Assembly: GCF_029813115.1 (NCBI RefSeq)
Contig: NZ_JAPZDS010000023.1
Location: forward strand, 1-41,428
Direction of reading: 5' to 3'
DNA length: 41,428 nt
Source of the DNA: Aureimonas sp. SK2
GTDB taxonomy: Bacteria > Pseudomonadota > Alphaproteobacteria > Rhizobiales > Rhizobiaceae
Shown: positions 4,411-37,999 of the stretch, one piece after another
Numbering within the stretch: the stretch's first letter is position 1
Layout of the letters: the number at the start of each line of letters is the position of its first letter
The notes under the pieces: model-generated
Seen by the model: only the letters and a program-made list of their open reading frames with translations
Told to the model about the DNA's origin: nothing
The model's database searches: none
Translations under genes and position numbers: made by a program

Positions 4411-4428
4411 ACGGCATGCCGATGCGCC

Positions 4429-19402: not shown

Positions 19403-20405
19403 ATGGGACAGGTTCGTCACGGCAGCGCCACGACCACGCACGCCATCCGAGCAGCAATACAGCGATCGCTTGTTTTCCTCGCGGCGCTGAGCCGAGAGTT
19501 CGGCATCAATCCGAAGACGGTAGCCAAGTGGCGCAAACGTCAGACCCTTGAGGACAGGAAGACCGGTCCGAAAGAGCCGCGTTCGACGACCTTGAGCGAG
19601 GCCGAAGAGGCGATGGTCGTCGCATTTCGCCGGCATACGCTGCTGCCGTTGGATGACTGCCTCTACGCGCTACAGCCGACGATCCCGCATCTGACCCGGT
19701 CAGCGCTGCACCGGTGCCTCCAGCGGCATGGCATATCCAGATTGCCGGATTTGGAAGGTGACAAGCCAAAGCGGCAGCGCTTCAAGCGCTACCCGATTGG
19801 CTTCTTTCACCTGGACATTGCCGAAGTGCAGACTGGCGAAGGCAAGCTCTACCTGTTCGTCGCGATCGACCGCACCAGTAAGTTCGCGGTCACCCAGCTC
19901 GTCGACAAAGCTGACAGACGGACGGCCTGGGAGTTCTTGGAACACCTGCTGCAAGCTGTGCCCTATCGGATCCACACGATCCTGACCGAGTTCGGAGGAT
20001 CAGAAATCGATCCAGTGAATCGATTTCCCGGAGAACGGCATCCAGTTCGCCGAGCAGCCGCGCAACCGTAACACCGCCTGGTCCCGGCAGATGCGCTTCG
20101 ACATGATCTGCGAGGCCAACGGCATCGAGCACCGCCTCACCAAGCCGAACCACCCCTGGACGAACGGTCAGGTCGAGCGGATGAACCGCACGATCAAGGA
20201 AGCCACCGTCGAACGCTTCCACTACGAGAGCCACGATCAGCTTCGAACGCACCTCGCCGACTTCATGGCAGCCTACAACTTCGGCCGCCGGCTCAAGACG
20301 CTCGGTGGTCTGACGCCCTACGAATACATCGCCCGGATCTGGACCTCAGAGCCAGACCGGTTCATCGTCAATCCGATCCATCAGATGCCGGGACTGAACA
20401 CCTAG
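19403..20405 (+). pseudogene. IS481-family transposase, disrupted by a 43-bp insertion
   Basis: The N-terminal part has the helix-turn-helix SLAALSREFGINPKTVAKWRK-type segment (near 19470-19530), and the catalytic core starts with the first Asp in FHLDIAEV. At 19991 an inserted 43-bp palindromic sequence breaks the second catalytic motif (expected T-D-N-G-I-Q-F): the first frame runs to a stop at 20071. The rest (ENGIQFAEQPRN onward, then the Glu in WTNGQVERMNR, ending HQMPGLNT) continues in another frame to 20405. Because 43 is not a multiple of three, no full-length protein can be made. The ATG at 19403 follows GGAGG. Confidence 0.85.
19991..20033. repeat. 43-bp palindromic insertion inside the IS481 transposase
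   Basis: The insert sits between GAG (19988-19990) and GAG (20031-20033) at the conserved TDNG codons. Its core GAAATCGAT-CCAGTGA-ATCGATTTC (20003-20027) is a perfect 9-bp inverted repeat with a 7-base loop. The structure and the clean interruption of a conserved domain suggest a short mobile palindromic element. Confidence 0.65.
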
Positions 20406-20678: not shown

Positions 20679-21998
20679 TCATCGCGATGCTGGCATTGGA
20701 GGCTTGCACCATGATCCGATGATCGTGGCCGTCACATCGATTGTACGCGACAGGTCTCGAAGGTCGACCCATTCGCCGATCCCCTTCGCCATTGTCAGAT
20801 TGCCGCATGCCGGACCGTAACCGACGGTTGGCATGGAGCGCTGGACGAGAGGGTTGCGGATGTCGCTCGACGTATGGAGCGGGTTCACCTTCGGGTTCGC
20901 TCCGGCATCCTGCAGCGTCCCCCGGACCAGTCGGTAGAGCGGCCCCTCGACGTCCGTTTCGGCGGCCGATACCCCGGAGAGCCATTCCACCACGGGCTTC
21001 TCAGCCAGAGGCCATTCCAGTTCGTGCAAGGCGCCTGATACGGCATCGTCCACGAGTGCCTTCGCGTCCGCCAGGGTCTCGCCCGGCACCAGCGACATCA
21101 CCGCCTGGATCCGGCAGGAGGCTGGGACGCGCGCCGAGGCGCCTGTTTCTCCGGCCTCGATCCGCGTCACGAGGAGGTTGGTGGAGCGGCCGACCGCGTC
21201 CTGCAGGAGGGGGTGTCGGACGCTTTCGCCTCGCACGCGGTCGAGGGCCGCCAGCGCGTTTAGGACGGCTCGCATCGCATCCAGCGGGTGACGGGCCAGA
21301 TGGGCGAAGGCTGCGTGCGAAGGCTCGTCGGTTTGCGGGGGAACTCCCTCGATCTCCACCGCGAACTCGATCTGCCCCGGCGCAAAGGCCTTGATCTCGT
21401 CGAGACCGGCGCCTGATTCCGCCGGATGCAGGTAGATCGCCGCATCCGCCACGAGCCCGCTGGCGAGCGCTGCGGCAATTCCCCGGCGATGCCGCTTCGA
21501 GGGCGCCGATACGAGGGTGACCGGTGCCGGCGGAGCCCAGCCGCGGGCCCGCAGCCGCGCGAGCGAAGCCACCATGATCATGATCCCGGCGATGTCGTCG
21601 GCTACGCCCCATCCGATCAGGCGACCGTTCTCGATCCGCGGCGTGTGCGGATCCTGGTTCCAGCCGTGATCCGCCTGACAGGGCTCCACGTCGGGATGGG
21701 CGAAGAGAAGGAGACTTTTGGCATCGACCGTCGAGACCGAGGGCACGATTCTGCCGATCAGGCATGTCTGCTCGCTGGAGACGAGATCGACGCCGGAGGC
21801 GAACTCTTCGATCAGCGGGACGGCCCGCGGATCGTAGGCGAGAGGCTCGACCTCGCAACCCACGGCCTCCATCGCCTCCGCGACGAGGCCTGCAAAGGTC
21901 GTCTCATCCTTCGCAGCCACGACGAGCCGCATCAGAAGGTCGAGCTCTTCCGGGGAAAGGTCGCCATGGCCGGGGGCTGCGGCTGCCGAGGTCATCAT
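20679..21998 (-). CDS. M20-family amidohydrolase/peptidase with altered active site
   Basis: A 439-residue M20 (ArgE/DapE/carbamoylase) family protein. Zinc ligands are visible as His101 and Asp103 (AHPDVEP), Asp134 (GWGVADDIAG), an acidic ligand in HPAES (191-195) and a C-terminal His (NPLHTSSD). The catalytic Glu-Glu pair normally found after the central strand is replaced: the segment reads SAPSKRHRRG (164-173), with no acidic residue. If sequence and alignment hold, the enzyme either uses another base or has lost hydrolysis. M20 members include N-carbamoyl-amino-acid amidohydrolases, so it could follow the hydantoinase in the same operon. Last gene, 85 bases after DUF3830; start ATG 21998 with AGGGAG upstream. 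Confidence 0.85.
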   Translation of the reverse strand: MMTSAAAAPGHGDLSPEELDLLMRLVVAAKDETTFAGLVAEAMEAVGCEVEPLAYDPRAVPLIEEFASGVDLVSSEQTCLIGRIVPSVSTVDAKSLLLFAHPDVEPCQADHGWNQDPHTPRIENGRLIGWGVADDIAGIMIMVASLARLRARGWAPPAPVTLVSAPSKRHRRGIAAALASGLVADAAIYLHPAESGAGLDEIKAFAPGQIEFAVEIEGVPPQTDEPSHAAFAHLARHPLDAMRAVLNALAALDRVRGESVRHPLLQDAVGRSTNLLVTRIEAGETGASARVPASCRIQAVMSLVPGETLADAKALVDDAVSGALHELEWPLAEKPVVEWLSGVSAAETDVEGPLYRLVRGTLQDAGANPKVNPLHTSSDIRNPLVQRSMPTVGYGPACGNLTMAKGIGEWVDLRDLSRTIDVTATIIGSWCKPPMPASR

Positions 21999-22083
21999 GG
22001 AATGCGGCTCCCTATGGGACGGTGGATCAAATCCGACGGCCGTCCGCTCGAATGCCCGGACCGCCGCTAACTCCCTTCGCCGC

Positions 22084-22497
22084 TCAGTCCAGCCGGAAGC
22101 GGATCGACTTTGCACCCGTCCACAAGGTGCCGCGGCCGAGTTCGGCCAGCGTGTCCAGCTTGTCGGTGATCGTCAGGAAATGGTTGCCCGCCAGCGGTCC
22201 GGCCTTGGAGGCGAAGGCGACCGGGCCGTAGGCGATGAGGATCTCGGTTTCCGAGACGCCACCGGGATAGAGGATCATCTGGCCGGGATGGGGGTGGCTG
22301 GTCGCGTTCTCGTAGCCGAGGCCGAAGTCCGTGTCGCCGAGGGGAATCCAGCAGGCTTCTCCCGACCAGCGGACGTGGATCACCCGTTCGGAATAGGGCA
22401 GGAGGCTGCGAAAGGCGGCCACGGTCTTGGGCGCCGTCTCGCTTTCGAAGCGCGCGGCAAACGAATGGCCGTCGATCTCGACAGTGAGATTGCTCAT
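22084..22497 (-). CDS. DUF3830 family protein (cyclophilin-like fold)
   Basis: A 137-residue protein matching DUF3830, a family predicted to have a small cyclophilin-like beta barrel. Typical features are the APKTVAAFRSLLP segment (residues 22-34), the VIHVRWSGEACWIPLGD stretch and PHPGQMILYPGG. No enzymatic residues are established. It lies 10 bases after the hydantoinase and is certainly in the same operon. Its role may be in ring opening or substrate handling by the hydantoinase/M20 pair, but this is inference from position only. Confidence 0.85.
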   Translation of the reverse strand: MSNLTVEIDGHSFAARFESETAPKTVAAFRSLLPYSERVIHVRWSGEACWIPLGDTDFGLGYENATSHPHPGQMILYPGGVSETEILIAYGPVAFASKAGPLAGNHFLTITDKLDTLAELGRGTLWTGAKSIRFRLD

Positions 22498-22507
22498 GAA
22501 GGTCTCC

Positions 22508-23929
22508 TTAAAGGGCGGTTCTCAGACCGCGTTCGAGCGGGGCCTGGATGGAACTGCGCGACCGGTAGCGTCCGGCCCCCTTTTGCCCGACCAGCGCACC
22601 GTCCTCGATCATCGTCCGACCGCCGAGAACGACCGTGGTCGGCCAGCCCCAGATCTCAAGCCCCTCGTAGGGGCTGTAGTCGGCGCCGTCGTGAAGATCG
22701 GCGTGGCGGATGGCGCGACGCTCCTCCGGGTCCCAGATCGCGATGTCGGCGTCCATGCCGACCGCGATGCGCCCTTTTCGCTCCAGCCCATAGACCTCGG
22801 CGTGGTTCGTTGCCGTCAGCGCCACGAAGCGGGGCAGGTCGATCCGCCCCTTCATCACCCCTTCGGAGAACAGGATCGGCAGGCGCGTCTCGACGCCCGG
22901 AATGCCGTTCGGGATATGGCGGAAGCCTCGGCGGCTTCCCGGATGCAGCTTGCCGGCGGGGTCGTCGTAGCGGAACGGGCAGTGATCGGAGGAGAACAGG
23001 TCGAAAACGCCGGTCTCCAAGCCGCGCCAGCAGGCCTCCTGGCTGGCCGCATCGCGCGGCGGCGGCGAGCACACGAACTTCGCCCCCTCCCAATCCATGC
23101 CGTCGAGGTCGGCGGCGGTGAGCATCAGGTATTGCGGGCAGGTCTCGCCGAAGACGTTGACGCCGCGGGCCCGTGCCGCACGGATCTCGTCGATCGCCGG
23201 ACCGTTGGAGACGTGGACGATGACGATCCTGGTGTCGACAACTTCGGCAAGCGAAAGGGCGCGATGCGTCGCCTCGCGCTCCACCACGATCGGCCGCGTC
23301 AATGCATGGAAGCGCGGCGCAATTTCGCCCGCCTCTTCGGCCCGCCCGATGAGGTAGCGGATCGCGTCCTCGTTCTCGCAGTGGACCATGACAATCGCTC
23401 CGGTCCGACGGGCGACATCGAGCGTCCGGATGATCTCGGCATCGTTCAGGCGAAGGCCCTCGTAGGTCATGAAGACCTTGAACGAGGTGTAGCCGTCGGC
23501 GACCAATGCCGGCAGGTCCTGGCCCAGTATGGCGGCGTTGATCTCGGGAAGGATCAGGTGGAACGAGAAATCCGTATAGCACTCCCCTTCGGCGAGGGCG
23601 TGATACGCGGTCAGTGCTTCCCGCAGCGGCTGCCCCCTGGCCGGCAGGCAGAAAGGCAGGACGGTCGTGTTGCCGCCGAAGAGCGCCGAGCGCGTACCGC
23701 TCTCGAAATCGTCGGCCATCACGATGCCCTCACCCGACGGCTGGGACAGGTGGACGTGGCTGTCGATGCCGCCGGGCAGGACGTAGCGGCCGGTGGCGTC
23801 GATCTCCTCGGCGCCCGGCGGCAGCGCTTCGCCGATCTGGACGATGCGTCCGTTGCGGATGCCGATGTCGGCCGTAAAGACGTCGGAGGCCGTGGCGATC
23901 GTGCCGCCGCGAATGACGAGGTCCAGCAT
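22508..23929 (-). CDS. Dihydropyrimidinase/hydantoinase-type amidohydrolase
   Basis: A 473-residue cyclic amidohydrolase that opens five- or six-membered cyclic amide rings such as hydantoins, dihydropyrimidines or lactams. All metal-site residues of the family are present: His58 and His60 (SHVH), the carboxylatable Lys151 (TSFKVFMTY), His183 (MVHCEN), His239 (VHVSN) and Asp315 (SSDHCPF). ATG 23929 starts 11 bases after the ABC ATPase stop. The product would be an N-carbamoyl or N-acyl amino acid, a fitting substrate for the M20 enzyme encoded two genes later. True hydantoin specificity is not proved. Confidence 0.92.
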   Translation of the reverse strand: MLDLVIRGGTIATASDVFTADIGIRNGRIVQIGEALPPGAEEIDATGRYVLPGGIDSHVHLSQPSGEGIVMADDFESGTRSALFGGNTTVLPFCLPARGQPLREALTAYHALAEGECYTDFSFHLILPEINAAILGQDLPALVADGYTSFKVFMTYEGLRLNDAEIIRTLDVARRTGAIVMVHCENEDAIRYLIGRAEEAGEIAPRFHALTRPIVVEREATHRALSLAEVVDTRIVIVHVSNGPAIDEIRAARARGVNVFGETCPQYLMLTAADLDGMDWEGAKFVCSPPPRDAASQEACWRGLETGVFDLFSSDHCPFRYDDPAGKLHPGSRRGFRHIPNGIPGVETRLPILFSEGVMKGRIDLPRFVALTATNHAEVYGLERKGRIAVGMDADIAIWDPEERRAIRHADLHDGADYSPYEGLEIWGWPTTVVLGGRTMIEDGALVGQKGAGRYRSRSSIQAPLERGLRTAL

Positions 23930-23940
23930 CACGGTCGCCC

Positions 23941-24669
23941 TCAATGTCGCAGGATCTTGCCGAGGAAGGTCTGCGTCCTCGGATTGGTGACGTCGGAGAA
24001 GAACGCCTCGGTCGGTCGGTCCTCGACGATCTCGCCCTGGTCGATGAAGACGACCCGCGTCGCGACGTTTCGGGCAAAGCCCATCTCGTGGGTCACGCAC
24101 ATCATGGTCATGCCCTCGCGGGCGAGGCCGACCATGACGTCGAGGACTTCGGCGATCATCTCGGGGTCGAGCGCGGAGGTCGGCTCGTCGAAGAGCATAG
24201 CCATCGGGTCCATCGCTAAGGCACGCGCGATCGCCACGCGCTGCTGCTGGCCGCCCGACAACTGGCCGGGATACTTGGCCGCGTGGTCGGCGAGCCCCAC
24301 CCGGTCGAGCAGCGCCATTCCCTTGGCCTTCGCAACGTCGGGCGTGCGCTGGAGGACCATCTCCTGCGCGATCGTCAGGTTCTCGATGATCGACAGGTGC
24401 GGGAAAAGCTCGAAGTTCTGGAACACCATGCCGATTCGCGTGCGCAGGTTCGGCAGGTCGGTCTTCGGGTCGCCGACCTCGATGCCCTGGACCCGGATCG
24501 AGCCCTCGTCGAAGCCTTCGAGCCCGTTGACGCACTTGATGAGGGTCGACTTGCCCGACCCCGACGGGCCGCAGACGACGACCACCTCCCCCTTGGCGAC
24601 ATGGGTGCTGCAGTTCTTGAGGACCTGGAACTTCCCGTAGAACTTGTTGACGCCTTGGATCTCGATCAT
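23941..24669 (-). CDS. Polar amino-acid ABC transporter ATP-binding protein
   Basis: A 242-residue GlnQ/HisP-type ATPase. Walker A GPSGSGKST is at residues 34-42, the Q-loop FQNFELFPHL follows, then LSGGQQQRVAIARAL, Walker B MLFDEPTSALD and the switch His in CVTHEMGFA. It energises the permease and binding protein encoded at the start of the operon. The start overlaps the stop of the FAD fusion gene by four bases (ATGA). Unusually, the ATPase is separated from its permease and binding-protein genes by two enzyme genes. Confidence 0.95.
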   Translation of the reverse strand: MIEIQGVNKFYGKFQVLKNCSTHVAKGEVVVVCGPSGSGKSTLIKCVNGLEGFDEGSIRVQGIEVGDPKTDLPNLRTRIGMVFQNFELFPHLSIIENLTIAQEMVLQRTPDVAKAKGMALLDRVGLADHAAKYPGQLSGGQQQRVAIARALAMDPMAMLFDEPTSALDPEMIAEVLDVMVGLAREGMTMMCVTHEMGFARNVATRVVFIDQGEIVEDRPTEAFFSDVTNPRTQTFLGKILRH

Positions 24670-27575
24670 GGGCGGCCTTTCGCGAAGCGCGTGACGGAGA
24701 AGGGGCCGATGTCGTGCGTCGCGGGCCTTCCGGCCACGAGATCGGCGGTGATGCGGCCAACGAGCGGCCCGAGGGTGTAGCCGTTGGAGGTGACGGCGTT
24801 GAAGAAGCCGGGGGCGTCGGGGTGCTCGCCGAGGATCGGCGCGCCGTCGATGTTGATGTTCATCGCCGCCCAGCTCCGGATGACATGCGCCTTGCGAAGC
24901 GCCGGCACGACGTGCTGCGCCACCCAGAGGTTGCCCTCCAGGCTGTCGAAGAGCGGGCGCGGATGCTGGTGCACCGGATCGAGCCCGGCGGTCCAGCCAC
25001 CGCCGATGATGATGTTGCCGTTCGCCGCCTGCTTCAGCGTCAGGTGGCGGCCGGCATGGGCGACGAGGCAGGATACGAGCGGTGCGACGGCTTCGGTCAC
25101 TACCATCTGCAGCGGGGCGCCGAAGACCGGCACGTCAAGCCCGAGCATGGCTCCGATGCGCGAGGCGAAGGCGCCTGCCGCGTTCACGACCCGGCGCGCC
25201 CGGATCGGGCCGCGCGAGGTATCGACGGCATAGGCGTCGCCCTCGCGCCGGATCGCCCGGATCTCGGCGTTCGTATGGAGGCGTGCGCCGGCCGAAAGGG
25301 CCGCCGATAGGACGCCTTCGGTGGCCACGAGCGGATTGATCTTGCCCTCCTGCGGGCAGAACGCGGCGCCGAGGAAGTGCTCCGACAGCGCGGGCTCGCG
25401 GCGGCGGAGCTCCGCCGCATCGATCAGGTCGCAGGCGATCCCTTGCGAGCGCTCGACCGCAGTCTTGGCTTCCAGGAAGCGTAGATGCTCCTCGGTCTCG
25501 GCGACCATCAGGCCGCCGGTGACCTTGATTTCGAAGTCCGACGCCAGCTCTCGCTCCAGCTGGCGCCACAGGTCGATCGAGTCCCGCTGCAGCGGGAGGG
25601 TGCGCGCAGCCGGCCCGCCGCCGGCTTCTGCGCGCGCGCCGTAGTCGAAGGAGAGGAGCTGCGCATGCAGGCTCCCGGCATTACCGCCCGAGGCGCCGGA
25701 ATTGGGAACGCCGCGTTCGACCACGGCGACGTCCTCGCCCGCGCGGGCGAGGAACAGCGCGGTGGACAGTCCGGCGATCCCGGCGCCGATCACCAGCGTT
25801 CCGACGGAAAGCGGCGGCAGCGGTTCGGCGTCCGGAGCCGCCCGGTCGGGCAGGAGCGCGCGGCGATGGCCGCCCCATTCCGGCTTCTCCAGCGCGAGCG
25901 CGGCGAGGGGGATCGGCCGGAGCGGCATCTGCGCGGCGAGCTTGGGCACGACCTCGCGGGCCTTGGGATCGCGCGCGGCGGCCCGCGCGAGGACCGGGCC
26001 GCAATAGCGGCCCTGGCAGCGGCCCATGCCGGCGCGGGTCATGCGCTTGAGGCTGGCGGTGTCGCCATGGGGCCCCTCTGCCAGCGCCTGCGAGACGGCC
26101 GCAAAGCTCACCGCCTCGCATCGGCAGGCCAGCGTGTCCGCGGATGGCGGCGGAGCGTCCGACGCGTCGAAAAGGGTCCAGAGCGCAGCCTGGAAGGTCT
26201 CGTGCCGGGCGAGGCGCCGGCGGTCGGCCCGCTCCTCGTCCGCCTCGGTCGCCGTGCGGGAGCCGAGCTCGCGCGATGCGGCGCGGCCCGCGAGCCGACC
26301 CTGCGCCAGCGCCACATGGGCGCCGGCGAAGCGGCCGGCCTCGCCGATCACGAAGACGTCGGGCTGGGACGTGCGGCCGGTCTCGTCACGCTCGACCTCC
26401 AGCCGGCCGCCGCGATCGCGGTGGGCGCAGCCGAGGAGCCGCGCGAGTTCGTTGGCGGAGGCAAAGCCGCTGCCGACGACCACGGCGTCGACCGCGGCGC
26501 GCCGCTCGCCCTCGGGGGTCGCGTAGACGGCGGCCTCGACCCGCCCGTCGCCCTCGACCCGCACGAGTTGCGAGGACCAGGAGAGGGGGATGCTCGACGC
26601 GCGCAGCCGGGCCATCTGCCGCATGCCGGCAAGCGCGAGCGCCGGGTGGCTGATGACAAGACGACCCGCCTCGCGCGGCCGCGTGTGCGGGGCCGGGGCC
26701 CGGTCGAGAACCGCGGCGACCGTCGACCCCGCGGCGGCAAGCTCCAGGGCCACCTGCAGGTTGAGAGGACCGTTGCCGGCCACGAGGACGCGCTGCCCCG
26801 CGGACACGCCGTAGGAGCGGATCAGCGTCTGCGCCCCGCCGGTGGTCATCACGCCCGGCAAGGTCCAGCCGGGAAGCGCAAGCGGCGTCTCGAAGGCGCC
26901 GGTGGCGACCACGAGCACGCGCGGGCGCCAGCGGGCCGCCTCGCCCCGGCTGACGGTTCCGAGAACGAGTTGGCCGTCCTTGTCCCGCTCGGCGCCCCAG
27001 ACCAGCGTCTCGTTGCGGATGGCGACGCCGAGGCCGCGCACCCGCTCGATCAGCGTCGCGCCCTCCTGCATCTGCCCGTCGCGCGCCGCCATGCCCTGGC
27101 GCTGCTTGTAGAACTGCCCGCCGGGGCCGGGACGCTCGTCGAGCACCGTCACGCTCGCCCCGTGCCGTGCCGCGGCCTCCGCGGCCGCAAGGCCCGCCGG
27201 CCCGGCGCCCACGACCAGGACGTCGACGCTCTGTTCGGCGATCTGCATCGGCAGTCCGGCGAGATCGGCAAGGTAAGGATCGAGGAGGTCGATCCGCGCG
27301 GGATGGCTCCGCACGTCCTGGCCGTCCTCCGACTTGGTGAGACAGGCGCGCTGCCCCGCGCGTCCGTTCACCACCACGAGACACTCGTGGCAGACGCCCA
27401 TGCCGCAGTAGTGGCCGCGCGGGCGTCCGTCCTTGCCGATGGACTGCGCCTTCAGGTCCGCCGCGATCAGCGTCGCGGCAAGGCTCTCGCCCGGCACGGC
27501 CGGGAGAGCGCGGCCATCGAACCGGATGGTCGCCGTCGCGCCGACGCGGGAGCTGGGGGCGGGCGCCATCGGCAT
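24666..27575 (-). CDS. Three-in-one Oox/Hcn-type FAD dehydrogenase fusion
   Basis: A 969-residue chain joins what are normally three subunits of amino-acid/opine/hydroxyproline dehydrogenases. Residues 15-95 are a ferredoxin-like [2Fe-2S] domain (Cys57, Cys62, Cys65, Cys78). Residues 117-440 are a pyridine-nucleotide-type FAD domain (VVGAGPAGLAAAEAA). Residues 480-530 are a BFD-like [2Fe-2S] motif (Cys484, Cys486, Cys520, Cys525). Residues 592-960 are a DadA-like FAD amine oxidase (VIGAGIAGLSTALF). It should oxidise a C-N bond and pass electrons internally. One base separates it from the DapA-like gene, a pairing known from cis-4-hydroxy-D-proline degradation; other D-amino acids or imino acids are possible. 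No proline epimerase gene is in the window. Confidence 0.92.
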   Translation of the reverse strand: MPMAPAPSSRVGATATIRFDGRALPAVPGESLAATLIAADLKAQSIGKDGRPRGHYCGMGVCHECLVVVNGRAGQRACLTKSEDGQDVRSHPARIDLLDPYLADLAGLPMQIAEQSVDVLVVGAGPAGLAAAEAAARHGASVTVLDERPGPGGQFYKQRQGMAARDGQMQEGATLIERVRGLGVAIRNETLVWGAERDKDGQLVLGTVSRGEAARWRPRVLVVATGAFETPLALPGWTLPGVMTTGGAQTLIRSYGVSAGQRVLVAGNGPLNLQVALELAAAGSTVAAVLDRAPAPHTRPREAGRLVISHPALALAGMRQMARLRASSIPLSWSSQLVRVEGDGRVEAAVYATPEGERRAAVDAVVVGSGFASANELARLLGCAHRDRGGRLEVERDETGRTSQPDVFVIGEAGRFAGAHVALAQGRLAGRAASRELGSRTATEADEERADRRRLARHETFQAALWTLFDASDAPPPSADTLACRCEAVSFAAVSQALAEGPHGDTASLKRMTRAGMGRCQGRYCGPVLARAAARDPKAREVVPKLAAQMPLRPIPLAALALEKPEWGGHRRALLPDRAAPDAEPLPPLSVGTLVIGAGIAGLSTALFLARAGEDVAVVERGVPNSGASGGNAGSLHAQLLSFDYGARAEAGGGPAARTLPLQRDSIDLWRQLERELASDFEIKVTGGLMVAETEEHLRFLEAKTAVERSQGIACDLIDAAELRRREPALSEHFLGAAFCPQEGKINPLVATEGVLSAALSAGARLHTNAEIRAIRREGDAYAVDTSRGPIRARRVVNAAGAFASRIGAMLGLDVPVFGAPLQMVVTEAVAPLVSCLVAHAGRHLTLKQAANGNIIIGGGWTAGLDPVHQHPRPLFDSLEGNLWVAQHVVPALRKAHVIRSWAAMNINIDGAPILGEHPDAPGFFNAVTSNGYTLGPLVGRITADLVAGRPATHDIGPFSVTRFAKGRP

Positions 27576-27576
27576 G

Positions 27577-28473
27577 TCAGGCGGCGAGTGCCCGGGTGAG
27601 GCCGAAGTGGTCGACCAGCGCCTTCATGCGGGCGTCGTCGGCCGCCGGCAGCGGCAGGCGGGGCGGGCGCGGTTCGCCGACCGCAAAGCCCATGTGGCCG
27701 AGGAGCGCCTTCGTCCCGCCGACATAGAGATGCCCGCCGACCGCCTCGATCAGCGGCAGCCATTCGAGATAGAGCCTGTGCGCCTCGGGAACGCGGTTCT
27801 CGTCCTTCACCAGCTCGAAGATGCGCGCCATCTGCCGTGGGGCGACGTTGGACGCCACGGCGACCCAGCCTTCCGCCCCTTCCACGAAGGACTCAAAGCC
27901 CAGGATGCCGCCGAAGACCGTCATGTTGGAGCCGGCCTTGCGGATGATATCGCGCACGCGCGTCACCTCAAGCGTCGACTCCTTGATGTAGTCGCAGCCC
28001 CCGATCTCGGCGATCCGCGCGACGAGATCGGGCTTAAGGTCCACGTTGGCTGTCGCCGGATTGTTGTAGACCATGATCGGGAGCTTGGTCGCTGCGGCGA
28101 TCGTGCGGTAGTGGTGGACGAGCTCGTCGTCGGTCGGCGTCGAGTAGAAGGGCGGAATGATCATCACCCCGTCGGCCCCGAGGTCCTCGGCCTGTCGCGT
28201 AAGGCGGACGGCCTCGCGCGTGTCCTCGGCGCCCGTGCCGATCAGGACGGGGACCCGGCCGGCGGCCGTCTCGATCACGGTCCTCGCGACCTCGACGCGC
28301 TCCTCCTCGGACAGGGACAGGAACTCGCCGGTGGAGCCGAGCGGGATCAGGCCGTGGATGCCTTCCCGGACCTGCCAGTCGGTGAAGGCTTTGAGCGTTT
28401 CGACGTCAAGCCGTCCGGCCTTGTCGAACGGCGTGATCATGACGGTGTAGACACCGCGAAAGGTCTTCTGCAT
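27577..28473 (-). CDS. DapA/NAL-family aldolase or deaminase
   Basis: A 298-residue (beta/alpha)8 lyase of the dihydrodipicolinate synthase/N-acetylneuraminate lyase superfamily. It has GSTGEF (46-51), the catalytic Tyr136 (MVYNNP) and the Schiff-base Lys164 (YIKEST). Members catalyse aldol condensation, cleavage or deamination, including deamination of pyrroline-4-hydroxy-2-carboxylate. Its position directly before the FAD fusion favours a catabolic lyase/deaminase over lysine biosynthesis. Twenty-six bases separate it from the permease; ATG 28473. Confidence 0.92.
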   Translation of the reverse strand: MQKTFRGVYTVMITPFDKAGRLDVETLKAFTDWQVREGIHGLIPLGSTGEFLSLSEEERVEVARTVIETAAGRVPVLIGTGAEDTREAVRLTRQAEDLGADGVMIIPPFYSTPTDDELVHHYRTIAAATKLPIMVYNNPATANVDLKPDLVARIAEIGGCDYIKESTLEVTRVRDIIRKAGSNMTVFGGILGFESFVEGAEGWVAVASNVAPRQMARIFELVKDENRVPEAHRLYLEWLPLIEAVGGHLYVGGTKALLGHMGFAVGEPRPPRLPLPAADDARMKALVDHFGLTRALAA

Positions 28474-28499
28474 GGCGATGGATCCGTTGAAAGGCGGGG

Positions 28500-29192
28500 T
28501 CAGCGCTGCTCGCTCGCGGCAAGCGGCTGGTCGGAGCGTCCGAAGCGCCGCTCGATCCGGCGCTGAACAAGGTCCCAGAGCGTGGTCAGGAGAAGGTAGT
28601 AGATCGCCGCGACGGTGAAGAGTTCGAGCACCTCGAAGCGCTCCTGGATGAGGACCTGCGTGCGGCGCAGGAGTTCCTCCATCGAGATCACCGAGGTGAC
28701 AGAGGTGGTCTTGAGGAGGCCGTTCACCGAGTTGCCGAGCGGCGGCACGATGATCTTCAGCGCCTGCGGAAGCACGATCGAGCGCATGATCTGCGGCTCG
28801 CGCATGCCGAGCGCGCGCGCGGCCCGCACCTGGCCCTTCGGCACCGCCTCGATGCCGGCGCGGATGATCTCGGCGAGATAGGCCGCCTCGTTGAGCGACA
28901 GGCCAATCAGCGCGGCCTGCCAGACGTTGAAGCGGATGCCGAGTTCGGGCAGGGCGGTGTAGATGACGATGAGCTGGACGAGTAGTGGCGTTCCGCGGAA
29001 CAGCCAGACATAGGCGCCCGCCAAGCCCGAGAGGATGCGCGACGACGAGCGCCGCATCAGGGCGAGGCCGAAGCCGAGCACGAGGCCGGCGAGGATGGCG
29101 ACGACCGTCAGCCAGAGCGTCGTGAAGACGCCCTGGAGGATGAACGGGTTCACGAGGTAGCCGAAGAAGCCCGACCAGTTCCAGTTCAGCAT
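28500..29192 (-). CDS. Polar amino-acid ABC transporter permease
   Basis: A 230-residue HisM/GlnP-type permease with an N-terminal helix about residues 20-45, the conserved FRGTPLLVQL segment and the coupling loop EAVPKGQVRAARALGMREPQIMRSIVLPQALK. About five membrane helices are visible. It is the only permease in the operon, so the channel is probably a homodimer. It lies 52 bases after the binding-protein gene and feeds the downstream catabolic enzymes. Confidence 0.94.
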   Translation of the reverse strand: MLNWNWSGFFGYLVNPFILQGVFTTLWLTVVAILAGLVLGFGLALMRRSSSRILSGLAGAYVWLFRGTPLLVQLIVIYTALPELGIRFNVWQAALIGLSLNEAAYLAEIIRAGIEAVPKGQVRAARALGMREPQIMRSIVLPQALKIIVPPLGNSVNGLLKTTSVTSVISMEELLRRTQVLIQERFEVLELFTVAAIYYLLLTTLWDLVQRRIERRFGRSDQPLAASEQR

Positions 29193-29244
29193 GCGTGCGG
29201 TCCTTCGCCGGATCGTCGCCGAGGCGGGGTGGAAAGACTGGCGG

Positions 29245-30072
29245 TCAGCCCGCCGGACCCTTCACGGCGAGCTCGCCGGACACCGGCTCGACGCCGTACT
29301 CGGCAAACAGCTTGTCGAAGGAGCCGTCGGCCTTCATGTCCGCGAGCACCTTCGCCACCGCGTCCGCCAGCGGGCGGCTCTTCATGGCGAGGGCCACCGG
29401 CGTCGGGCCGATCCCGTGCAGCGCGCGGTGGAACTGGCCGCGCTTGGCGTATTCCTCGGCCACGCCGTCGATCGAAACCATCGCGTCGACCTGGCCGGCG
29501 CGCAGCGCCTGATAGGCGAGGGCGAAATTGTCGAAGGTCCGCACCGTCGCGCCCTCGAGGCCCTTCTCGCGCAGCTGCGCGTCGATCGCCTTGGCCTGCT
29601 TCTCCTCGAAGCCGCCGATCTCGACGCCGATCGAGTGGCCGGCGAGATCGTCGAGCGACTTGACCTCGATGCCGGAATTATTGGCCGTCGAGATGCTGAT
29701 CGCCTGGTTCTCGTAGGGGATCATCTGCATCATCGCCGCACGCTCGGGCGTGTAGAAGATGCCGGTGTTGATGAGGTCCCAGCGGCCCGACTGAAGCCCG
29801 GGCACCATCGCCGAGAACTCGATGCGGATGTATTCGGGCTCAAGGCACAGCCGCTTGGCGATCTCCCTGCCGAGCTCGACGCGCATGCCCTTCAGCTCGC
29901 CCGACGCATCTACGAACTGCAGCGGCGGCAAGGTCGGGTTCGTCGACATGACCAGCTTGCCCGGTTGAATGAGTTCGCTGTCGGCGACGACGGGCTTGCA
30001 GTCCTGTGCCTGGGCCGTCGTGGCAAGGAGGAGGGCGCCGAGCGCGATCGTCAGGGAAAACCGGATGGGCAT
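29245..30072 (-). CDS. Family 3 substrate-binding protein (amino-acid type)
   Basis: A 275-residue periplasmic binding protein with a Sec signal peptide (RFSLTIALGALLLATTAQA, cleavage about residue 23). The mature protein begins DCKPVVADSEL and has the family-3 pattern PPLQFVDASGELKGMRVEL followed by GLQSGRWDLI. This places it with binding proteins for polar amino acids or related small zwitterions. ATG 30072 has AGAGG 7 bases upstream; a TTG at 30090 is in frame but less likely. It is the first gene of the eight-gene operon, behind a promoter with a GntR-type operator at 30116-30125. Confidence 0.93.
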   Translation of the reverse strand: MPIRFSLTIALGALLLATTAQAQDCKPVVADSELIQPGKLVMSTNPTLPPLQFVDASGELKGMRVELGREIAKRLCLEPEYIRIEFSAMVPGLQSGRWDLINTGIFYTPERAAMMQMIPYENQAISISTANNSGIEVKSLDDLAGHSIGVEIGGFEEKQAKAIDAQLREKGLEGATVRTFDNFALAYQALRAGQVDAMVSIDGVAEEYAKRGQFHRALHGIGPTPVALAMKSRPLADAVAKVLADMKADGSFDKLFAEYGVEPVSGELAVKGPAG

Positions 30073-30115
30073 GGTGAAACCTCTTGGCAAGATCGGGAGG
30101 AAGTGCGCATGCTAG

Positions 30116-30156
30116 TGGTATACCAATATTATGCGATGAATGCCGGAGGCTTGCAA
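30116..30156 (-). promoter_or_regulatory. Promoter and operator of the eight-gene operon
   Basis: On the minus strand TTGCAA (30156-30151), a 17-base spacer and CATAAT (30133-30128) form a sigma70-like promoter. The perfect 10-bp palindrome TGGTATACCA (30116-30125) starts two bases downstream of the -10 box and covers the expected start of transcription, a typical repressor position. The same palindrome with one change lies before the nearby GntR gene. Confidence 0.75.
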
Positions 30157-30175
30157 GATGGATTCTTCGAAGTCG

Positions 30176-30826
30176 TCAGAAGCGTTCGAGAACGCGTCGG
30201 CGGATGCCGGACAGGTGTCGCCGCATCGCGTCCGCCGCCTGGTCGGGCGCGCGAAGCGACAGCGCGGTCAGGATCTCCCGGTGCTCACCGTTGTCGACGT
30301 GCAGCGTCGCCCGCCATTTCGTCTGGCGTTCGTAGAGCGTGGTGTAGCGGCGCATATCCTGGAGGTACCGCGTCATGAACGGGTTGCCGCATTGGGTCGC
30401 GATCAGCGCGTGGAGATCGTCGTCAAACAGGAGGAGGTCGATCTCCTGGAGGTCGTCTGTCGTCTCCAGCCGCGCCATCTCGGCCTCGAGCCGGGCGACG
30501 TCGGCGGCCGCAACGGCCGTGGCCGCGAGCGACGCGGCGGCTGGCTCGACGAGCGCGCGCATCTCCAGGGTCTGCAGATAGTCCTGAAGGCTGAGGGCGC
30601 GAACCGCCAGGATGCCGGTGTTGCTGCGCACCAGCAAGCCCTCGCCGGCCAACCGGCCGAGGGCGTCGCGCAAGGGCGAGCGCGAGACGCCGATCTCCTC
30701 GGCGATACGCCGTTCCTGGATGGGAGTCCCGGCCGCCAGGCGCGCGTCGAGAATGTCCGACAGGATTTGCCGGTAGGCCTTTTCAGAGAGATTGGTGGGT
30801 TCCGCCGGGGCCGGGGGCTTCGCCAT
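30176..30826 (-). CDS. GntR family regulator, FCD/FadR type (first copy)
   Basis: A 216-residue GntR regulator. The N-terminal winged helix has AYRQILSDILDARLAAGTPI and RRIAEEIGVSRSPLRDAL; the C-terminal FCD ligand domain has DLHALIATQCGNPFM and HREILTAL with MRRHL, giving the His/Asp residues that hold a metal in this class. It lies directly upstream of the ABC/hydantoinase operon on the same strand, separated from it by the operator promoter. I chose ATG 30826; a GTG at 30853 adds nine residues but lacks a ribosome site. It is the likely repressor of the operon and of itself. Confidence 0.9.
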   Translation of the reverse strand: MAKPPAPAEPTNLSEKAYRQILSDILDARLAAGTPIQERRIAEEIGVSRSPLRDALGRLAGEGLLVRSNTGILAVRALSLQDYLQTLEMRALVEPAAASLAATAVAAADVARLEAEMARLETTDDLQEIDLLLFDDDLHALIATQCGNPFMTRYLQDMRRYTTLYERQTKWRATLHVDNGEHREILTALSLRAPDQAADAMRRHLSGIRRRVLERF

Positions 30827-30863
30827 CTGGAGCTCGACTGTTTGCTTCCGCACGGCGAAGGAG

Positions 30864-30883
30864 TGGCATACCAGTCGTGTATA
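30864..30883 (-). promoter_or_regulatory. Operator and -10 box of the first GntR gene
   Basis: TGGCATACCA (30864-30873) differs by one base from the operator at 30116. On the minus strand a -10-like TATACA (30883-30878) lies four bases before it, so the site covers the expected transcription start, the same arrangement as in the operon promoter. It lies in the gap between the two divergent GntR genes. Confidence 0.7.
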
Positions 30884-30918
30884 GGCGAGGGGCGAGTGCG
30901 GGCGAGGGCGAGGCAGTC

Positions 30919-31593
30919 ATGATTTCAAACGAAGAGGCTGCGCCGACCGCGGCCGCCGATCGCAGCCCGAACCTTGCCAATCTCGCCTACCGCTCGGTCG
31001 CCGAAATGATCCGCAGCCGTCGCCTGCGCGGCGGCGACGTGATCGTCGAGGCCAAGCTTGCCGCGACGCTCGGCGTGTCGCGAACGCCGATGCGCGAGGC
31101 GCTTCAGAGGCTGGAGGGCGAGGGGCTCGTCCACAAGGGTGAGGGGCGCAACTATGTCGTGCGTCGCGTCGACCTCGGCGAATATCTTCAGAGCCTCCGA
31201 CTGCGACTCCTGATCGAGCCCGAGGCGGCGGTGCTTGCGCTCGACAATATTCCCCGCCGCACGCTTCTCGCCGTGCGCCTCGAGATTCTGGAACTCCTCG
31301 ACGCCAAGACGTACCACACCGATCAGCACTGGTTCTCGGACGACCATCTGCACGGGATGATCATCGATCATTGCGGCAACGCGGTCATGGCGCGCGTGCT
31401 CCGCGACCTGCGGGCTGCGACACGGCTCTTTGAGATCGACCAGCTAAAGGAGCGACTGATCCCGGACTCCTCGGAGCACCTCAGGATCATCGAGGCAATT
31501 CAGGCCACGGACGCCGAGGCCACGCGGGAAAGCGTCGCCGTCCACATCCGCAGCCTCATTGCGTTCGCCTTGGCGGCCTTCCAACTGAAGTAG
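30919..31593 (+). CDS. GntR family regulator, FCD/FadR type (second copy)
   Basis: A 224-residue GntR regulator divergent from the first. The helix-turn-helix region has AYRSVAEMIRSRRLRGGDVI and AKLAATLGVSRTPMREAL; the FCD domain has DDHLHGMIIDHCGNAVM and EHLRIIEAI. ATG 30919 follows a GAGGCAG. It is not closely similar to the first copy outside the common motifs, so it may answer to a different ligand. Both genes share one 90-bp control region, and it could act on this cluster or on the esterase genes that converge on it. No operon partner follows. Confidence 0.9.
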   Translation: MISNEEAAPTAAADRSPNLANLAYRSVAEMIRSRRLRGGDVIVEAKLAATLGVSRTPMREALQRLEGEGLVHKGEGRNYVVRRVDLGEYLQSLRLRLLIEPEAAVLALDNIPRRTLLAVRLEILELLDAKTYHTDQHWFSDDHLHGMIIDHCGNAVMARVLRDLRAATRLFEIDQLKERLIPDSSEHLRIIEAIQATDAEATRESVAVHIRSLIAFALAAFQLK

Positions 31594-31620: not shown

Positions 31621-33201
31621 CTACTGCTCCGCCTTGGGTTGAGTGGTTGTATCCCAATGTGGCGGAGCGGAGAGGACGAGCGCGCGGAGGTCGGCGGGCT
31701 CGGCTGCGTCGTCCATCCGGGTGTCGCCCTTCGCTGCGGCAAGTGCGAACCACGCCATACGTTCGCCGGCAAGGTTCATGTTCTCCGGGGATTGCGTCGC
31801 AAGCTGATGGGGGCCGTGGAAGACGAAGATGTCCTTCAAGCCCTTCGCGCGGTTCAGGGCGACGAGGCTGCCCTCCAGCCCCTCTACGTAATCCCAAGTG
31901 CCCTTGACGATCTGCAGCGCCGGCCAGCGGACGACGCCAGCCGCGACCTCGCCATCGGGATAGTACGTCGTCGAGAACTCCTCGCGCAGCGCCGCCTCAA
32001 TCACGTCGTGGCCCTTGACGCGCGTCCCGAGACCGCCGGCGTTCGGACCGTAGAGGATCGCGCCCTTAATGTTGGCGCGCCCGAGCGCCGGGCCGCAGGC
32101 ACCATCGGGGACGTCGCGGTCGCAGGTCTCAACGAAATTCTTCTGCATGGCATAGGCGACAGCGTAGGAGCCGCGTGAATAGCCCATCAGGACGATCGGC
32201 ATCGCCACGATGTCGGCGCCGTCCATCACGGTGGAGGCCGCCCGCGCACCTTCGAGGGCCTTGCCGTCCGGCCCCAACGCCCGCATGCCTTCGCCGGACG
32301 CCAACTGCTCGAACTCGCGGACCATGTCGTTGGCCTGTTCGGCGGTATTGAAGCCGTTCTGGCCGCCCGAAATTCCGTTGCCGCGCCGGTCGGTCACGAG
32401 GACGTCGAAGCCTGCTTCATGGAAGGCGTGGGCGAAGCCGCGCCAGTGGCGCATGCCAGGCTCTTCCGACAAGCCGTCCGGCGTCTCGTTCAGCACGTAC
32501 TTGCCGCTCGCCTCGTCGTGCGCGACGGGCACCGAGTTCGGATTGTCGAGCGCGGTGATCTCGTTGCCGCCCCCGTTGTTCATCACGACCAGCGCGCGTT
32601 CCCGCTGGCCGTCGTCGGACGCGATGCCGTCACCTCGGATATACCAGCCGCGCAGCTTGATCTCGCCGTCCGTCTTGAGGTGAACGCGCTCATAAGCATC
32701 GCGCGGCGCGGTGAACTCGACCACGAAAGTCTTGTCATCGGCGTCCGCGATCGGCTCGCCGTAGGGTGCCTTGCCGAAGTCGGCCGGGCGGCGGATATCT
32801 GACAGATCGACCGTGCCCTCTGGATCGATCTTGCCCCTAGTGCCGACTGTGCCGGTCTCTCGCGTCTCGACGCGAGCAAACCCCTTGGCGCCCTTGCGGG
32901 CCGCCGCCGCGCAGGCCTCGTCCGCCTTGCACCCAAGCCAGCGCTCGCGGATCTTGGCGTCGGTGAACTCGGCCGTGTAGAAGTCGCCGGCATAGCCCTC
33001 CGGCACGAGCTGGTTCAGCGGCATGAAGGGCTGGCAGAGGCCGGCGGCGTCCCGATAGCCGGGGAGATCGGCGTTTCGGTCGTAATTGACGCGGGCCGTG
33101 CAGTCGGGAGCCGGTGTTCCAGCGTTCACGACCGGCGCTTCCTGCGCCCCCGCTGCGCCCGACAAAACAATCAGGCTCGCGGCTACCAGAGTTCGACGCA
33201 T
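31621..33201 (-). CDS. Exported alpha/beta-hydrolase, large
   Basis: A 526-residue protein with a Sec signal peptide (MRRTLVAASLIVLSGAAGA, cleavage before QEA). The second half has an alpha/beta-hydrolase core with DVLVTDRRGNGISGG (266-280), then the nucleophile elbow MGYSRGSY with Ser342. The first 170 residues include several Cys and are not recognised, so it may be a two-domain periplasmic hydrolase. I chose ATG 33201 because GGAGG is 5-9 bases upstream. It converges on the second GntR gene and is the last gene of the Tct/PrpB set, 100 bases from its neighbour; co-transcription is plausible but unproved. Confidence 0.85.
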   Translation of the reverse strand: MRRTLVAASLIVLSGAAGAQEAPVVNAGTPAPDCTARVNYDRNADLPGYRDAAGLCQPFMPLNQLVPEGYAGDFYTAEFTDAKIRERWLGCKADEACAAAARKGAKGFARVETRETGTVGTRGKIDPEGTVDLSDIRRPADFGKAPYGEPIADADDKTFVVEFTAPRDAYERVHLKTDGEIKLRGWYIRGDGIASDDGQRERALVVMNNGGGNEITALDNPNSVPVAHDEASGKYVLNETPDGLSEEPGMRHWRGFAHAFHEAGFDVLVTDRRGNGISGGQNGFNTAEQANDMVREFEQLASGEGMRALGPDGKALEGARAASTVMDGADIVAMPIVLMGYSRGSYAVAYAMQKNFVETCDRDVPDGACGPALGRANIKGAILYGPNAGGLGTRVKGHDVIEAALREEFSTTYYPDGEVAAGVVRWPALQIVKGTWDYVEGLEGSLVALNRAKGLKDIFVFHGPHQLATQSPENMNLAGERMAWFALAAAKGDTRMDDAAEPADLRALVLSAPPHWDTTTQPKAEQ

Positions 33202-33301
33202 CCTGTTCCTCCCAGTTTCTAGAAGCGACGCCGTCATTCTGCACACCGGCGATGAGATCGTCAGGTGCCCTGATCGTTAGGGGCACGCCGATCGGCGCGA
33301 C

Positions 33302-34042
33302 CTACTGCGCGGGCTCAGCTGGTGCGGCTTCCAACCGCTGTTCGGCCAGCCAGTCCCAAAGTGCGGAGTCATTCAGCGCCGCCGCCTCGACTGCCTCATG
33401 GCTGGTGTTCTCGAAGACGGTCAGGCGCGCGTCGCGCTTCAGCGCCTTCAGACGCTCGTAGAGCACGACCGAGTCCGACAGCGGGATGACCTTGTCATCG
33501 GTCCCGTGAAAGACCCAGAAGGCTGCCTTCTCGCCCGTGCGGTTCAGATAGTGGCGATTGCCGCCGCCCGCGATCGGCACCACGGCGGCGAAGGTTTCGG
33601 GATACTGCTCCGCCATGGCCCAAGCCGCGAAGGCGCCGCGGCTGTATCCCATCACGACGATGCGGGATCGATCGACGCGGAGGTTGGCGACGACCTCGTC
33701 AAGCGCCGCCTTCACCTTCTCGATGGGATAGAGCAGTTCCTCATTCGGGTTCTGCGGCGAGAAGACGAGGTAGGGCACTTCGCGTCCGCCCTCGATCATC
33801 GCCGGAAGTCCGCTCGATCGTACCTTCTCGACATCGCTGCCGCCCTGATCGCCCCCGTGCAGCCAGACGATGAGCGGAAAGGCCTCATTGGAGGTCTCGT
33901 AGCCGGGGGGGGTGGATAGGAGATAGTTCAGATCGGCCGGGATCGTGGCGGTGGACCGGGCTGCCGTCTGTTCGGCTTGAGCCATTGGCATGCCGAGCCC
34001 AACGGCTGCCGAAAGGGTGAGCGAAGCGAGTATAACGCGCAT
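33302..34042 (-). CDS. Exported alpha/beta-hydrolase, esterase/PHB-depolymerase-like
   Basis: A 246-residue alpha/beta-hydrolase with a signal peptide (residues 1-23, AQA cleavage). IVWLHGGDQGG (58-68) forms the oxyanion region; the nucleophile is Ser134 in GYSRG, the acid is in HGTDDKV (Asp182/183) and the base is His215 in NTSHEA. This pattern resembles PHB-depolymerase/feruloyl-esterase and phospholipase/carboxylesterase families. With export, it probably cleaves an ester in the periplasm or outside. It lies 46 bases after the PrpB-like gene and may supply an acid for the Tct transporter. Confidence 0.88.
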   Translation of the reverse strand: MRVILASLTLSAAVGLGMPMAQAEQTAARSTATIPADLNYLLSTPPGYETSNEAFPLIVWLHGGDQGGSDVEKVRSSGLPAMIEGGREVPYLVFSPQNPNEELLYPIEKVKAALDEVVANLRVDRSRIVVMGYSRGAFAAWAMAEQYPETFAAVVPIAGGGNRHYLNRTGEKAAFWVFHGTDDKVIPLSDSVVLYERLKALKRDARLTVFENTSHEAVEAAALNDSALWDWLAEQRLEAAPAEPAQ

Positions 34043-34088
34043 GTGGATGGGTCCTCCCTGAAGACGAGGATGTGCCGGGCGGGGGGTC

Positions 34089-34994: not shown

Positions 34995-35013
34995 GAAGTC
35001 AGGTCCTTGGGCG

Positions 35014-36522: not shown

Positions 36523-36526
36523 GGCT

Positions 36527-36967: not shown

Positions 36968-36971
36968 CAAA

Positions 36972-37955: not shown

Positions 37956-37989
37956 TGCGAACCGTCCTCCCAAACGATAGCCTAATGAA

Positions 37990-37999
37990 GTGTCGACAC
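37990..37999. promoter_or_regulatory. Palindromic operator 1 upstream of tctC
   Basis: GTGTCGACAC is a perfect 10-bp palindrome 35 bases upstream of the tctC ATG. It shares the core TGTCGACA with a second site 63 bases away. Position fits repression of tctC by the divergent GntR protein (inferred). Confidence 0.65.

What the first reader, a model, noticed from the sequence alone, without database searches (positions are those of the whole stretch)
20679..31593. Eight-gene import-and-degradation operon for an unknown cyclic amide or imino-acid compound
The operon combines an amino-acid ABC transporter, hydantoinase-type ring opener (all metal ligands present), DUF3830 protein, M20 enzyme, DapA-family lyase and a full Oox-type dehydrogenase, with spacings from a 4-base overlap to 85 bases. 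Known hydantoin systems have a hydantoinase and carbamoylase; hydroxyproline systems have the Oox dehydrogenase and DapA lyase. Seeing both modules in one operon suggests a path from a cyclic amide via an amino acid to a keto acid that I cannot match to a described pathway.
Basis: partly seen in the sequence, partly recalled or inferred. Interest (0 to 1): 0.7.

Follow-up and report, generated by a model that had tools for sequence, protein, structure and literature searches.

The report
Conserved catabolic operon, substrate unknown
This is a real set of bacterial genes, kept together in many plant-associated bacteria, that probably imports and breaks down an unidentified amino-acid-like compound, and comparing its versions suggests jobs for two protein families whose function is unknown.

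Summary
The operon is real: eight genes at the stated places, with an operator-like palindrome ahead of them. It recurs elsewhere. Of 80 named loci fetched with the dehydrogenase alone (best 80 of 178), 80 carry the same DapA-like gene and 52 a hydantoinase, in alpha- and betaproteobacteria and in different gene orders. So the two modules belong together.

Corrections: the dehydrogenase is one polypeptide carrying all three Oox/opine-dehydrogenase subunits. The M20 protein belongs to a subfamily without the catalytic Glu-Glu pair. Hydantoinase and this M20 are optional. In 71 of 80 loci one more slot is filled by DUF3830 or by a Glu-Glu-type M20 protein, in none by both, so DUF3830 may do a deacylase-like job. 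Its predicted fold resembles domains of the Pictet-Spenglerases KslB and McbB.

Best reading: ring opening, de-acylation, oxidation by the fused dehydrogenase, then a Schiff-base lyase, similar to what has been proposed for lactam opines. Substrate, reactions and order are inferred. Hydroxyproline catabolism and a standard hydantoin system fit poorly.

The parts
30877..31593 (+). divergent GntR/FCD regulator
   Evidence: Pfam GntR and FCD; divergent pair also in AU20, A. vitis and many of the 80 loci
30864..30873 (-). operator-like site TGGTATGCCA between the two GntR genes
   Evidence: same place in L071-L073
30176..30853 (-). GntR/FCD regulator at the head of the run
   Evidence: Pfam; same position in many loci
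30116..30125 (.). palindromic operator-like site TGGTATACCA ahead of the SBP gene
   Evidence: 2 places in the 4.56-Mb genome; in 80 named loci 29 sites in 156,347 upstream bases against 6 in 1,451,271 others, 22 of 80 loci with one upstream
29245..30072 (-). amino-acid-type ABC substrate-binding protein; R111 invariant, column of the usual ammonium-binding Asp is Ile, Asp next to it invariant
   Evidence: SBP_bac_3
28500..29192 (-). amino-acid ABC permease
   Evidence: Pfam, HEQRo_perm_3TM
27577..28473 (-). DapA/NAL-superfamily Schiff-base lyase of an unassigned subfamily (K164; YNNPATANVDL)
   Evidence: DHDPS
24666..27575 (-). fused gamma-alpha-beta Oox/opine-dehydrogenase-like flavoenzyme, 969 aa
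   Evidence: Fer2_4, Pyr_redox_2, Fer2_BFD, DAO; motifs, and fused ORF in 80 of 80 loci
23941..24669 (-). amino-acid ABC ATPase
   Evidence: ABC_tran; best NCBIfam model GlnQ, below its cut-off
22508..23932 (-). D-hydantoinase/dihydropyrimidinase-family amidohydrolase
   Evidence: NF009941 715 bits, cut-off 647; ligands
22084..22497 (-). DUF3830, cyclophilin-like; proposed amide- or C-N-cleaving enzyme
   Evidence: PF12903; model pLDDT 89; KslB/McbB-like fold; never with Glu-Glu-type M20 in 80 loci
20679..21998 (-). M20-fold protein without the Glu-Glu pair (P166-S167-K168), optional part
   Evidence: model pLDDT 87

Best explanation
A GntR-controlled scavenging operon for a cyclic-amide form of an amino-acid-like or opine-like compound. 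The ABC importer brings in a carboxylate-bearing, probably N-substituted or cyclic amino acid. The hydantoinase, where present, opens a cyclic imide, ureide or lactam ring. DUF3830, which in other lineages is replaced by a Glu-Glu-type M20 protein, removes the exposed carbamoyl, acyl or amide group. The fused FAD/FMN/2Fe-2S dehydrogenase oxidises the resulting D-amino or secondary-amine acid to an imine or keto acid and passes electrons to the respiratory chain. The DapA-like enzyme forms a Schiff base with that keto acid and cleaves or deaminates it. The M20-SK protein (often near a phosphotriesterase-family hydrolase and an aspartate-dehydrogenase-like gene) is a second optional entry branch. 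Shown: gene set, its recurrence, operator-like sites, optional parts, residue losses, mutual exclusion in the 80 loci. Inferred: every reaction, their order, the control by GntR and the substrate.
For: 80 named loci fetched with the dehydrogenase alone: DapA 80, SBP 78, permease 77, ATPase 64, hydantoinase 52, DUF3830 47, Glu-Glu-type M20 24, M20-SK 20 of 80. 51 of 52 hydantoinase loci have DUF3830 or Glu-Glu-type M20; 0 of 80 have both. In 2 of 20 loci without whole hydantoinase (R. leguminosarum Norway, R. ruizarguesonis UPM1133) remnants of it are left in an otherwise kept operon, so it can be spared. The hydantoinase tree needs at least 3 changes between this operon and another one. Operator-like site ahead of the run. 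Motifs named by Watanabe 2015 (PMC4575208, section 22) are in the fusion, one with a longer spacing. SBP keeps the carboxylate Arg in 73 of 73 sequences (window and 72 of the 80 loci). A similar logic is proposed for lactam opines (PMC6733357, passages).
Against: I know of no substrate or activity for any member. DUF3830 was not shown to be an amidase, and its closest characterised folds are Pictet-Spenglerases, not hydrolases. The DUF3830/M20 exclusion is confounded by ancestry: 20 of the 24 Glu-Glu-type cases are one M20 type from Burkholderiales. The Glu-Glu-type M20 proteins themselves appear to lack the bridging Asp (my reading of sequences). 9 of 80 loci have neither. 58 of 80 loci have no exact operator-like site upstream. 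The three tree changes may be one gain and two losses. Dihydropyrimidinase-family enzymes usually open ureides and imides, not plain lactams (recalled). The Ti-plasmid precedent uses hydantoinase/oxoprolinase A/B proteins, another family, and is itself only a proposal.
Confidence: 0.45

Rival explanations
1. Hydantoin or dihydropyrimidine use: D-hydantoinase makes an N-carbamoyl-D-amino acid, DUF3830 or M20 acts as carbamoylase, and the dehydrogenase is a plain D-amino-acid dehydrogenase followed by a keto-acid lyase.
For: Hydantoinase matches NF009941 and TIGR02033 above cut-off with all metal ligands; 51 of 52 hydantoinase loci have a candidate second-step enzyme.
Against: No racemase or nitrilase-type carbamoylase family among the ten genes scanned; the operon's M20 lacks Glu-Glu; hydantoinase was not found in 28 of 80 loci, odd for the defining step.
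Confidence: 0.25
2. A multi-substrate cassette: the core (importer, fused dehydrogenase, DapA) handles one family of secondary-amine acids, while hydantoinase, DUF3830, M20 types and PTE-family enzymes are unrelated peripheral entries that do not act in series.
For: 15 combinations of these parts among 80 loci; hydantoinase deleted in place in 2 loci; a near copy of the hydantoinase sits in another operon with a cysteine-desulfurase-like gene.
Against: DUF3830 and Glu-Glu-type M20 never occur together in the 80 loci and one of them is present in 51 of 52 hydantoinase loci, which suggests a serial role.
Confidence: 0.2
3. [quoted passage not shown]
For: Same superfamilies; D-HypDH shares the alpha-beta-gamma plan (PMC4575208, passages).
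Against: No proline-racemase-family epimerase and no aldehyde dehydrogenase among the ten genes scanned; the S. meliloti pSymB stretch taken to hold hyp genes (place recalled, record not annotated) gives only 53 bits for DapA and 40 for the DAO part, against 345-649 bits for DapA in the 80 loci.
Confidence: 0.07

Closest known systems
Opine catabolic operons with Nox/Oox/Odh flavin dehydrogenase (octopine, nopaline, succinamopine)
   Same: amino-acid-type ABC importer plus FAD/FMN/2Fe-2S dehydrogenase with the same motifs; ring-opening genes proposed for lactam opines (PMC4575208 section 22; PMC6733357 passages)
   Different: subunits fused in one chain; DapA-like lyase, DUF3830 and M20 added; GntR rather than LysR regulators; dihydropyrimidinase-family rather than hydantoinase/oxoprolinase A/B opener; no opine specificity shown
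Hydantoin utilisation (hydantoinase plus N-carbamoyl amino acid amidohydrolase; features recalled)
   Same: D-hydantoinase-family enzyme; an M20-fold protein is encoded
   Different: M20 lacks the Glu-Glu pair; DUF3830, dehydrogenase and lyase are part of the set; hydantoinase optional
trans-4-hydroxyproline catabolism (lhp/hyp; features partly recalled)
   Same: D-HypDH-type dehydrogenase superfamily and DapA-superfamily enzyme
   Different: no epimerase or semialdehyde dehydrogenase in the operon; distant sequences
Pictet-Spenglerases KslB and McbB (for DUF3830 only)
   Different: DUF3830 is a single small domain, 16-21% identical; a shared fold shows no shared reaction

Membership tests
Oox/Odh/D-HypDH flavin dehydrogenase | C-x4-C-x2-C-x11/12-C cluster motif of the gamma part | tested here: met
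   C57 onward in the window; 79 of 80 loci
Oox/Odh/D-HypDH flavin dehydrogenase | two Gly-x-Gly-x2-Gly sites and Arg-x-Trp (FMN) motif | tested here: met
   G123, G597 and RSW at 900 in the window; narrower patterns in the 80 loci hit 21 (two glycine sites) and 59 (R-x-W-x-A-M-N)
Oox/Odh/D-HypDH flavin dehydrogenase | C-x-C-x15-20-C-x4-C of the alpha part, as printed in PMC4575208 | tested here: inconclusive
   C-x-C-x33-C-x4-C from C484; a pattern allowing 15-40 hits 80 of 80; Fer2_BFD is found
Oox/Odh/D-HypDH flavin dehydrogenase | separate alpha, beta and gamma subunits | tested here: not met
   one ORF in the window and in 80 of 80 loci
Opine dehydrogenase | activity on octopine or nopaline | not testable with these tools
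   needs enzyme assay
Hydantoin utilisation system | hydantoinase with carbamylated-Lys binuclear site | tested here: met
   H59, H61, K152, H184, H240, D316
Hydantoin utilisation system | N-carbamoyl amino acid amidohydrolase with intact M20 or nitrilase-type site | tested here: not met
   only M20-SK in the operon; no nitrilase family among the ten genes; the rest of the genome was not searched for one
M20 metallopeptidase/deacylase | Glu-Glu pair (catalytic base and metal ligand) | tested here: not met
   P166-S167-K168 (S-K opposite Glu-Glu by another alignment); PSK in 116 of 120 listed homologues and in 26 of 26 members of operon loci, none with Glu-Glu
M20 metallopeptidase/deacylase | M20 fold | tested here: met
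   Pfam 63.7 bits; model matches ArgE/DapE structures
Hydroxyproline catabolism | hydroxyproline epimerase and semialdehyde dehydrogenase in the operon | tested here: not met
   no such Pfam family in the ten genes
Dihydrodipicolinate synthase | Arg of the YNVPSRTG motif (E. coli R138, recalled) | tested here: not met
   window YNNPATANVDL; same in 54 of 80, variants without Arg in 10, pattern missed 16
Pictet-Spenglerase | beta-carboline-forming activity | not testable with these tools
   only fold similarity

The most novel reading that the evidence does not exclude
DUF3830 is an unrecognised enzyme family with a KslB/McbB-like cyclophilin fold that cleaves a C-N bond in ring-opened amino-acid derivatives and has displaced M20 deacylases. 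The M20-SK subfamily is an M20 fold with a rebuilt, possibly single-metal site (invariant H101, D134, H191) that no longer uses Glu-Glu. Together with a one-chain opine-type dehydrogenase they form an undescribed route for cyclic opine-like compounds in plant-associated bacteria.
Probability: 0.3. Interest if true: 0.7.

Novelty: new variant of a known kind. Interest (0 to 1): 0.5.

Why it matters
The operon gives testable functions to a large unknown family (DUF3830: all 7999 candidates that were scored matched, a capped list) and to a large M20 subfamily with an unusual site (1135 matches among 7998 scored, not all checked for the site). It also points to a nutrient shared by rhizobia, Azospirillum, Variovorax and Aureimonas. 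Knowing the substrate would show what cyclic amide these soil and plant bacteria compete for.

Tried and rejected
Papers. DUF3830 alone gave 0 papers; term sets joining hydroxyproline or dihydropyrimidinase with DapA-type names gave 0; cyclophilin-like plus hydantoinase 0; hydantoinase, dihydrodipicolinate synthase and operon gave 1, with both names only in its reference list. Other searches gave listings from which I opened the papers cited; only 20 of 35 were listed. I found no description of this operon that way; subscription journals are mostly missing. The 2012 hydroxyproline paper is not held.

DapA orthology to hydroxyproline deaminase was tested with S. meliloti pSymB and rejected as distant; the place of the hyp genes there is from memory. 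Promoter scan: 3 sigma-70-like sites (0.6 expected), one beside the operator-like site (30156-30128) and two inside the DapA and M20 genes; terminator scan: 3 sites against 4.2 expected. The second genomic TGGTATACCA (contig C45) lies near what I read as a GntR-like and an SDR gene; no family scan was made there and it gave no lead. Allantoin/pyrimidine systems were considered because DUF3830 also sits beside AtzD-like and allantoinase-like genes and haloarchaeal amidohydrolase and Zn-hydrolase genes; this suggests DUF3830 is used in several ring-opening pathways, not that this operon is one of those.

Counts. Hydantoinase tree: 47 of 49 loci used, L035 and L206 dropped for want of a stretch over 300 aa. 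The 80 loci are the best 80 of 178 confirmed relatives; 8 of them are not over 18 kb, so absences there are weaker. Presence means a phmmer score over set thresholds. One search lists 97 loci including duplicates of the same genomes; I count on the 80 only. The alignment for the M20 model has 49 sequences: the window and 48 of the 120 listed homologues.
Full report
Observation. Two regulators of the GntR/FCD type stand head to head at the start. The pattern TGGTATNCCA occurs at two places in the window, between the regulators (30864-30873) and ahead of the binding-protein gene (30116-30125), against 0.02 matches expected. The exact palindrome occurs at two places in the 4.56-Mb genome. In 80 named relatives, sites matching the pattern are found 29 times in 156,347 bases upstream of cluster genes and 6 times in 1,451,271 other bases; only 22 of 80 loci have one upstream, so most lack the exact form. 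Terminator-like sites over the region do not exceed chance (3 against 4.2). I take this as one transcription unit, not proven.

The organism is an Aureimonas relative: a same-genus genome (G012) has a contig of the same length as plasmid pAU20b of Aureimonas sp. AU20, with the same operon.

Conservation. With the dehydrogenase as sole query, 178 relatives were confirmed in the named genome collection and the best 80 fetched with up to 9-kb flanks. All 80 encode the same type of DapA-like protein; 78 the binding protein, 77 the permease, 64 the ATPase, 52 a hydantoinase, 47 DUF3830, 20 the M20-SK protein, 24 a Glu-Glu-type M20 protein, 14 a phosphotriesterase-family protein, 13 an aspartate-dehydrogenase-like protein (family names). 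Many Rhizobiaceae keep the window's order, without the M20 gene (for example A. vitis pAt). Most Burkholderiales loci and A. brasilense have the same parts in two divergent arms. The window's genome has 2 hydantoinase copies at E below 1e-150 in 4.56 Mb, so chance co-location in 52 of 80 loci is very unlikely.

The hydantoinase. It is intact, with all metal ligands. On a 47-sequence tree the hydantoinases of this operon are not one clade; starred branches force at least 3 changes between this operon and a second one, which may be gains or losses. The window's copy groups with that of AU20 (100/99), and these two with four copies from the second operon (95/86). That operon holds an importer and a cysteine-desulfurase-like protein (TIGR01976) and was seen in 7 of 12 same-genus loci examined. 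The closest dehydrogenases to the window's (96, 94 and 91%: Aureimonas phyllosphaerae, Leaf324, AU22) sit in operons without hydantoinase but with DUF3830 and M20-SK, so the window operon looks like a mosaic. In 2 of 20 loci lacking a whole hydantoinase, R. ruizarguesonis UPM1133 and R. leguminosarum Norway, remnants lie between ATPase and DUF3830 while the rest is kept; the other 18 show none. It is thus an optional part that has been lost more than once and probably gained more than once.

The M20-SK protein. Alignments put P166-S167 or S167-K168 (ArgE alignment) where other M20 enzymes have Glu-Glu. By my reading of these alignments the first-metal His (H101) and the bridging Asp (D134) remain, an invariant His (H191) stands at the third ligand, and the C-terminal His is gone. 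All 26 members of operon loci have PSK and none Glu-Glu; a C-terminal His-like motif was found in 1 of 26 (L098). PSK is found in 116 of 120 listed homologues. The model keeps the M20 fold. It is thus a coherent subfamily, not a decayed gene; whether it is catalytic is open. Of the 20 M20-SK loci among the 80, 13 also have a phosphotriesterase-family gene and 12 an aspartate-dehydrogenase-like gene. The two Glu-Glu types (M20b, M20c) also seem to lack the bridging Asp (sequences), so 'ordinary deacylase' should not be assumed for them either.

Dehydrogenase and lyase. The 969-aa protein contains the gamma (2Fe-2S), alpha (FAD, BFD-type 2Fe-2S) and beta (DAO, Arg-x-Trp) parts of the Odh/D-HypDH enzymes in one chain. 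The motifs listed by Watanabe et al. 2015 are present, one with a spacing of 33 instead of 15-20; 80 of 80 relatives are fused. A 41% relative in Roseicitreum has two separate genes. The DapA-like protein keeps the Schiff-base Lys and the Tyr but not the carboxylate-binding Arg of dihydrodipicolinate synthase, and has YNNPATANVDL instead (DHDPS residues recalled). Its reaction is unassigned.

Binding protein. The Arg that holds the alpha-carboxylate in amino-acid receptors is invariant (73 of 73 sequences: window and 72 of the 80 loci). The aligned column of the usual ammonium-binding Asp is Ile in 72 of 73, with an invariant Asp one place on (ligand roles recalled). This would fit a carboxylate-bearing ligand with a masked or displaced amine; it is weak evidence.

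Mechanism. Import; optional ring opening (hydantoinase); removal of the exposed group (DUF3830 or M20); oxidation (fused dehydrogenase); Schiff-base cleavage (DapA-like). The order is inferred from which parts are optional. The nearest printed precedent for the logic is the proposal that hydantoinase/oxoprolinase A/B proteins open lactam opines beside an Oox-type dehydrogenase on pTiEU6 (PMC6733357, passages), and a passage on lactamase/hydantoinase genes near a supposed rideopine region (PMC10410297, one passage). The aspartate-dehydrogenase-like gene near M20-SK would suit an opine-like compound that releases aspartate; this is speculation.

Verdict. Real and conserved, a new variant of known catabolic kinds rather than a new kind of system. 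Its main value is the handle it gives on DUF3830 and M20-SK. Substrate unknown.

Noticed in passing
own genome, L172 (G000:C3) 2181-7150: Second hydantoinase, 84% identical, in an importer operon with a TIGR01976 cysteine-desulfurase-like protein; such an operon in 7 of 12 same-genus loci examined.
   Followed up: partly
own genome, L035 (G000:C34): Second DUF3830 gene in a cluster with AtzD-like ring-opening amidohydrolase, allantoinase-like, SDR and ABC genes; similar clusters in some other same-genus genomes and Skermanella.
   Followed up: partly
window 20091-20405: Integrase-core (rve_3) fragment just beyond the 3' end of the operon.
   Followed up: no
L134 11898-13140 and L107 7797-8952: Glu-Glu-type M20 proteins of this operon in other bacteria seem to lack the bridging Asp (AAVSKSD, SNCKG).
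   Followed up: partly
L083, L104, L079, L075 and similar loci: M20-SK sits near a phosphotriesterase-family hydrolase and an aspartate-dehydrogenase-like gene; 3 operator-like sites lie ahead of PTE genes.
   Followed up: partly
window 33302-38018: Neighbouring cluster with TctA/TctC tripartite transporter, PEP mutase/isocitrate-lyase family protein and an alpha/beta hydrolase; the 541-aa frame at 31621-33246 has no Pfam match.
   Followed up: no
L152 7504-8423: Two DUF3830 genes in tandem in Paracoccus pantotrophus, near ureidoglycine aminohydrolase and Zn-dependent hydrolase genes.
   Followed up: no
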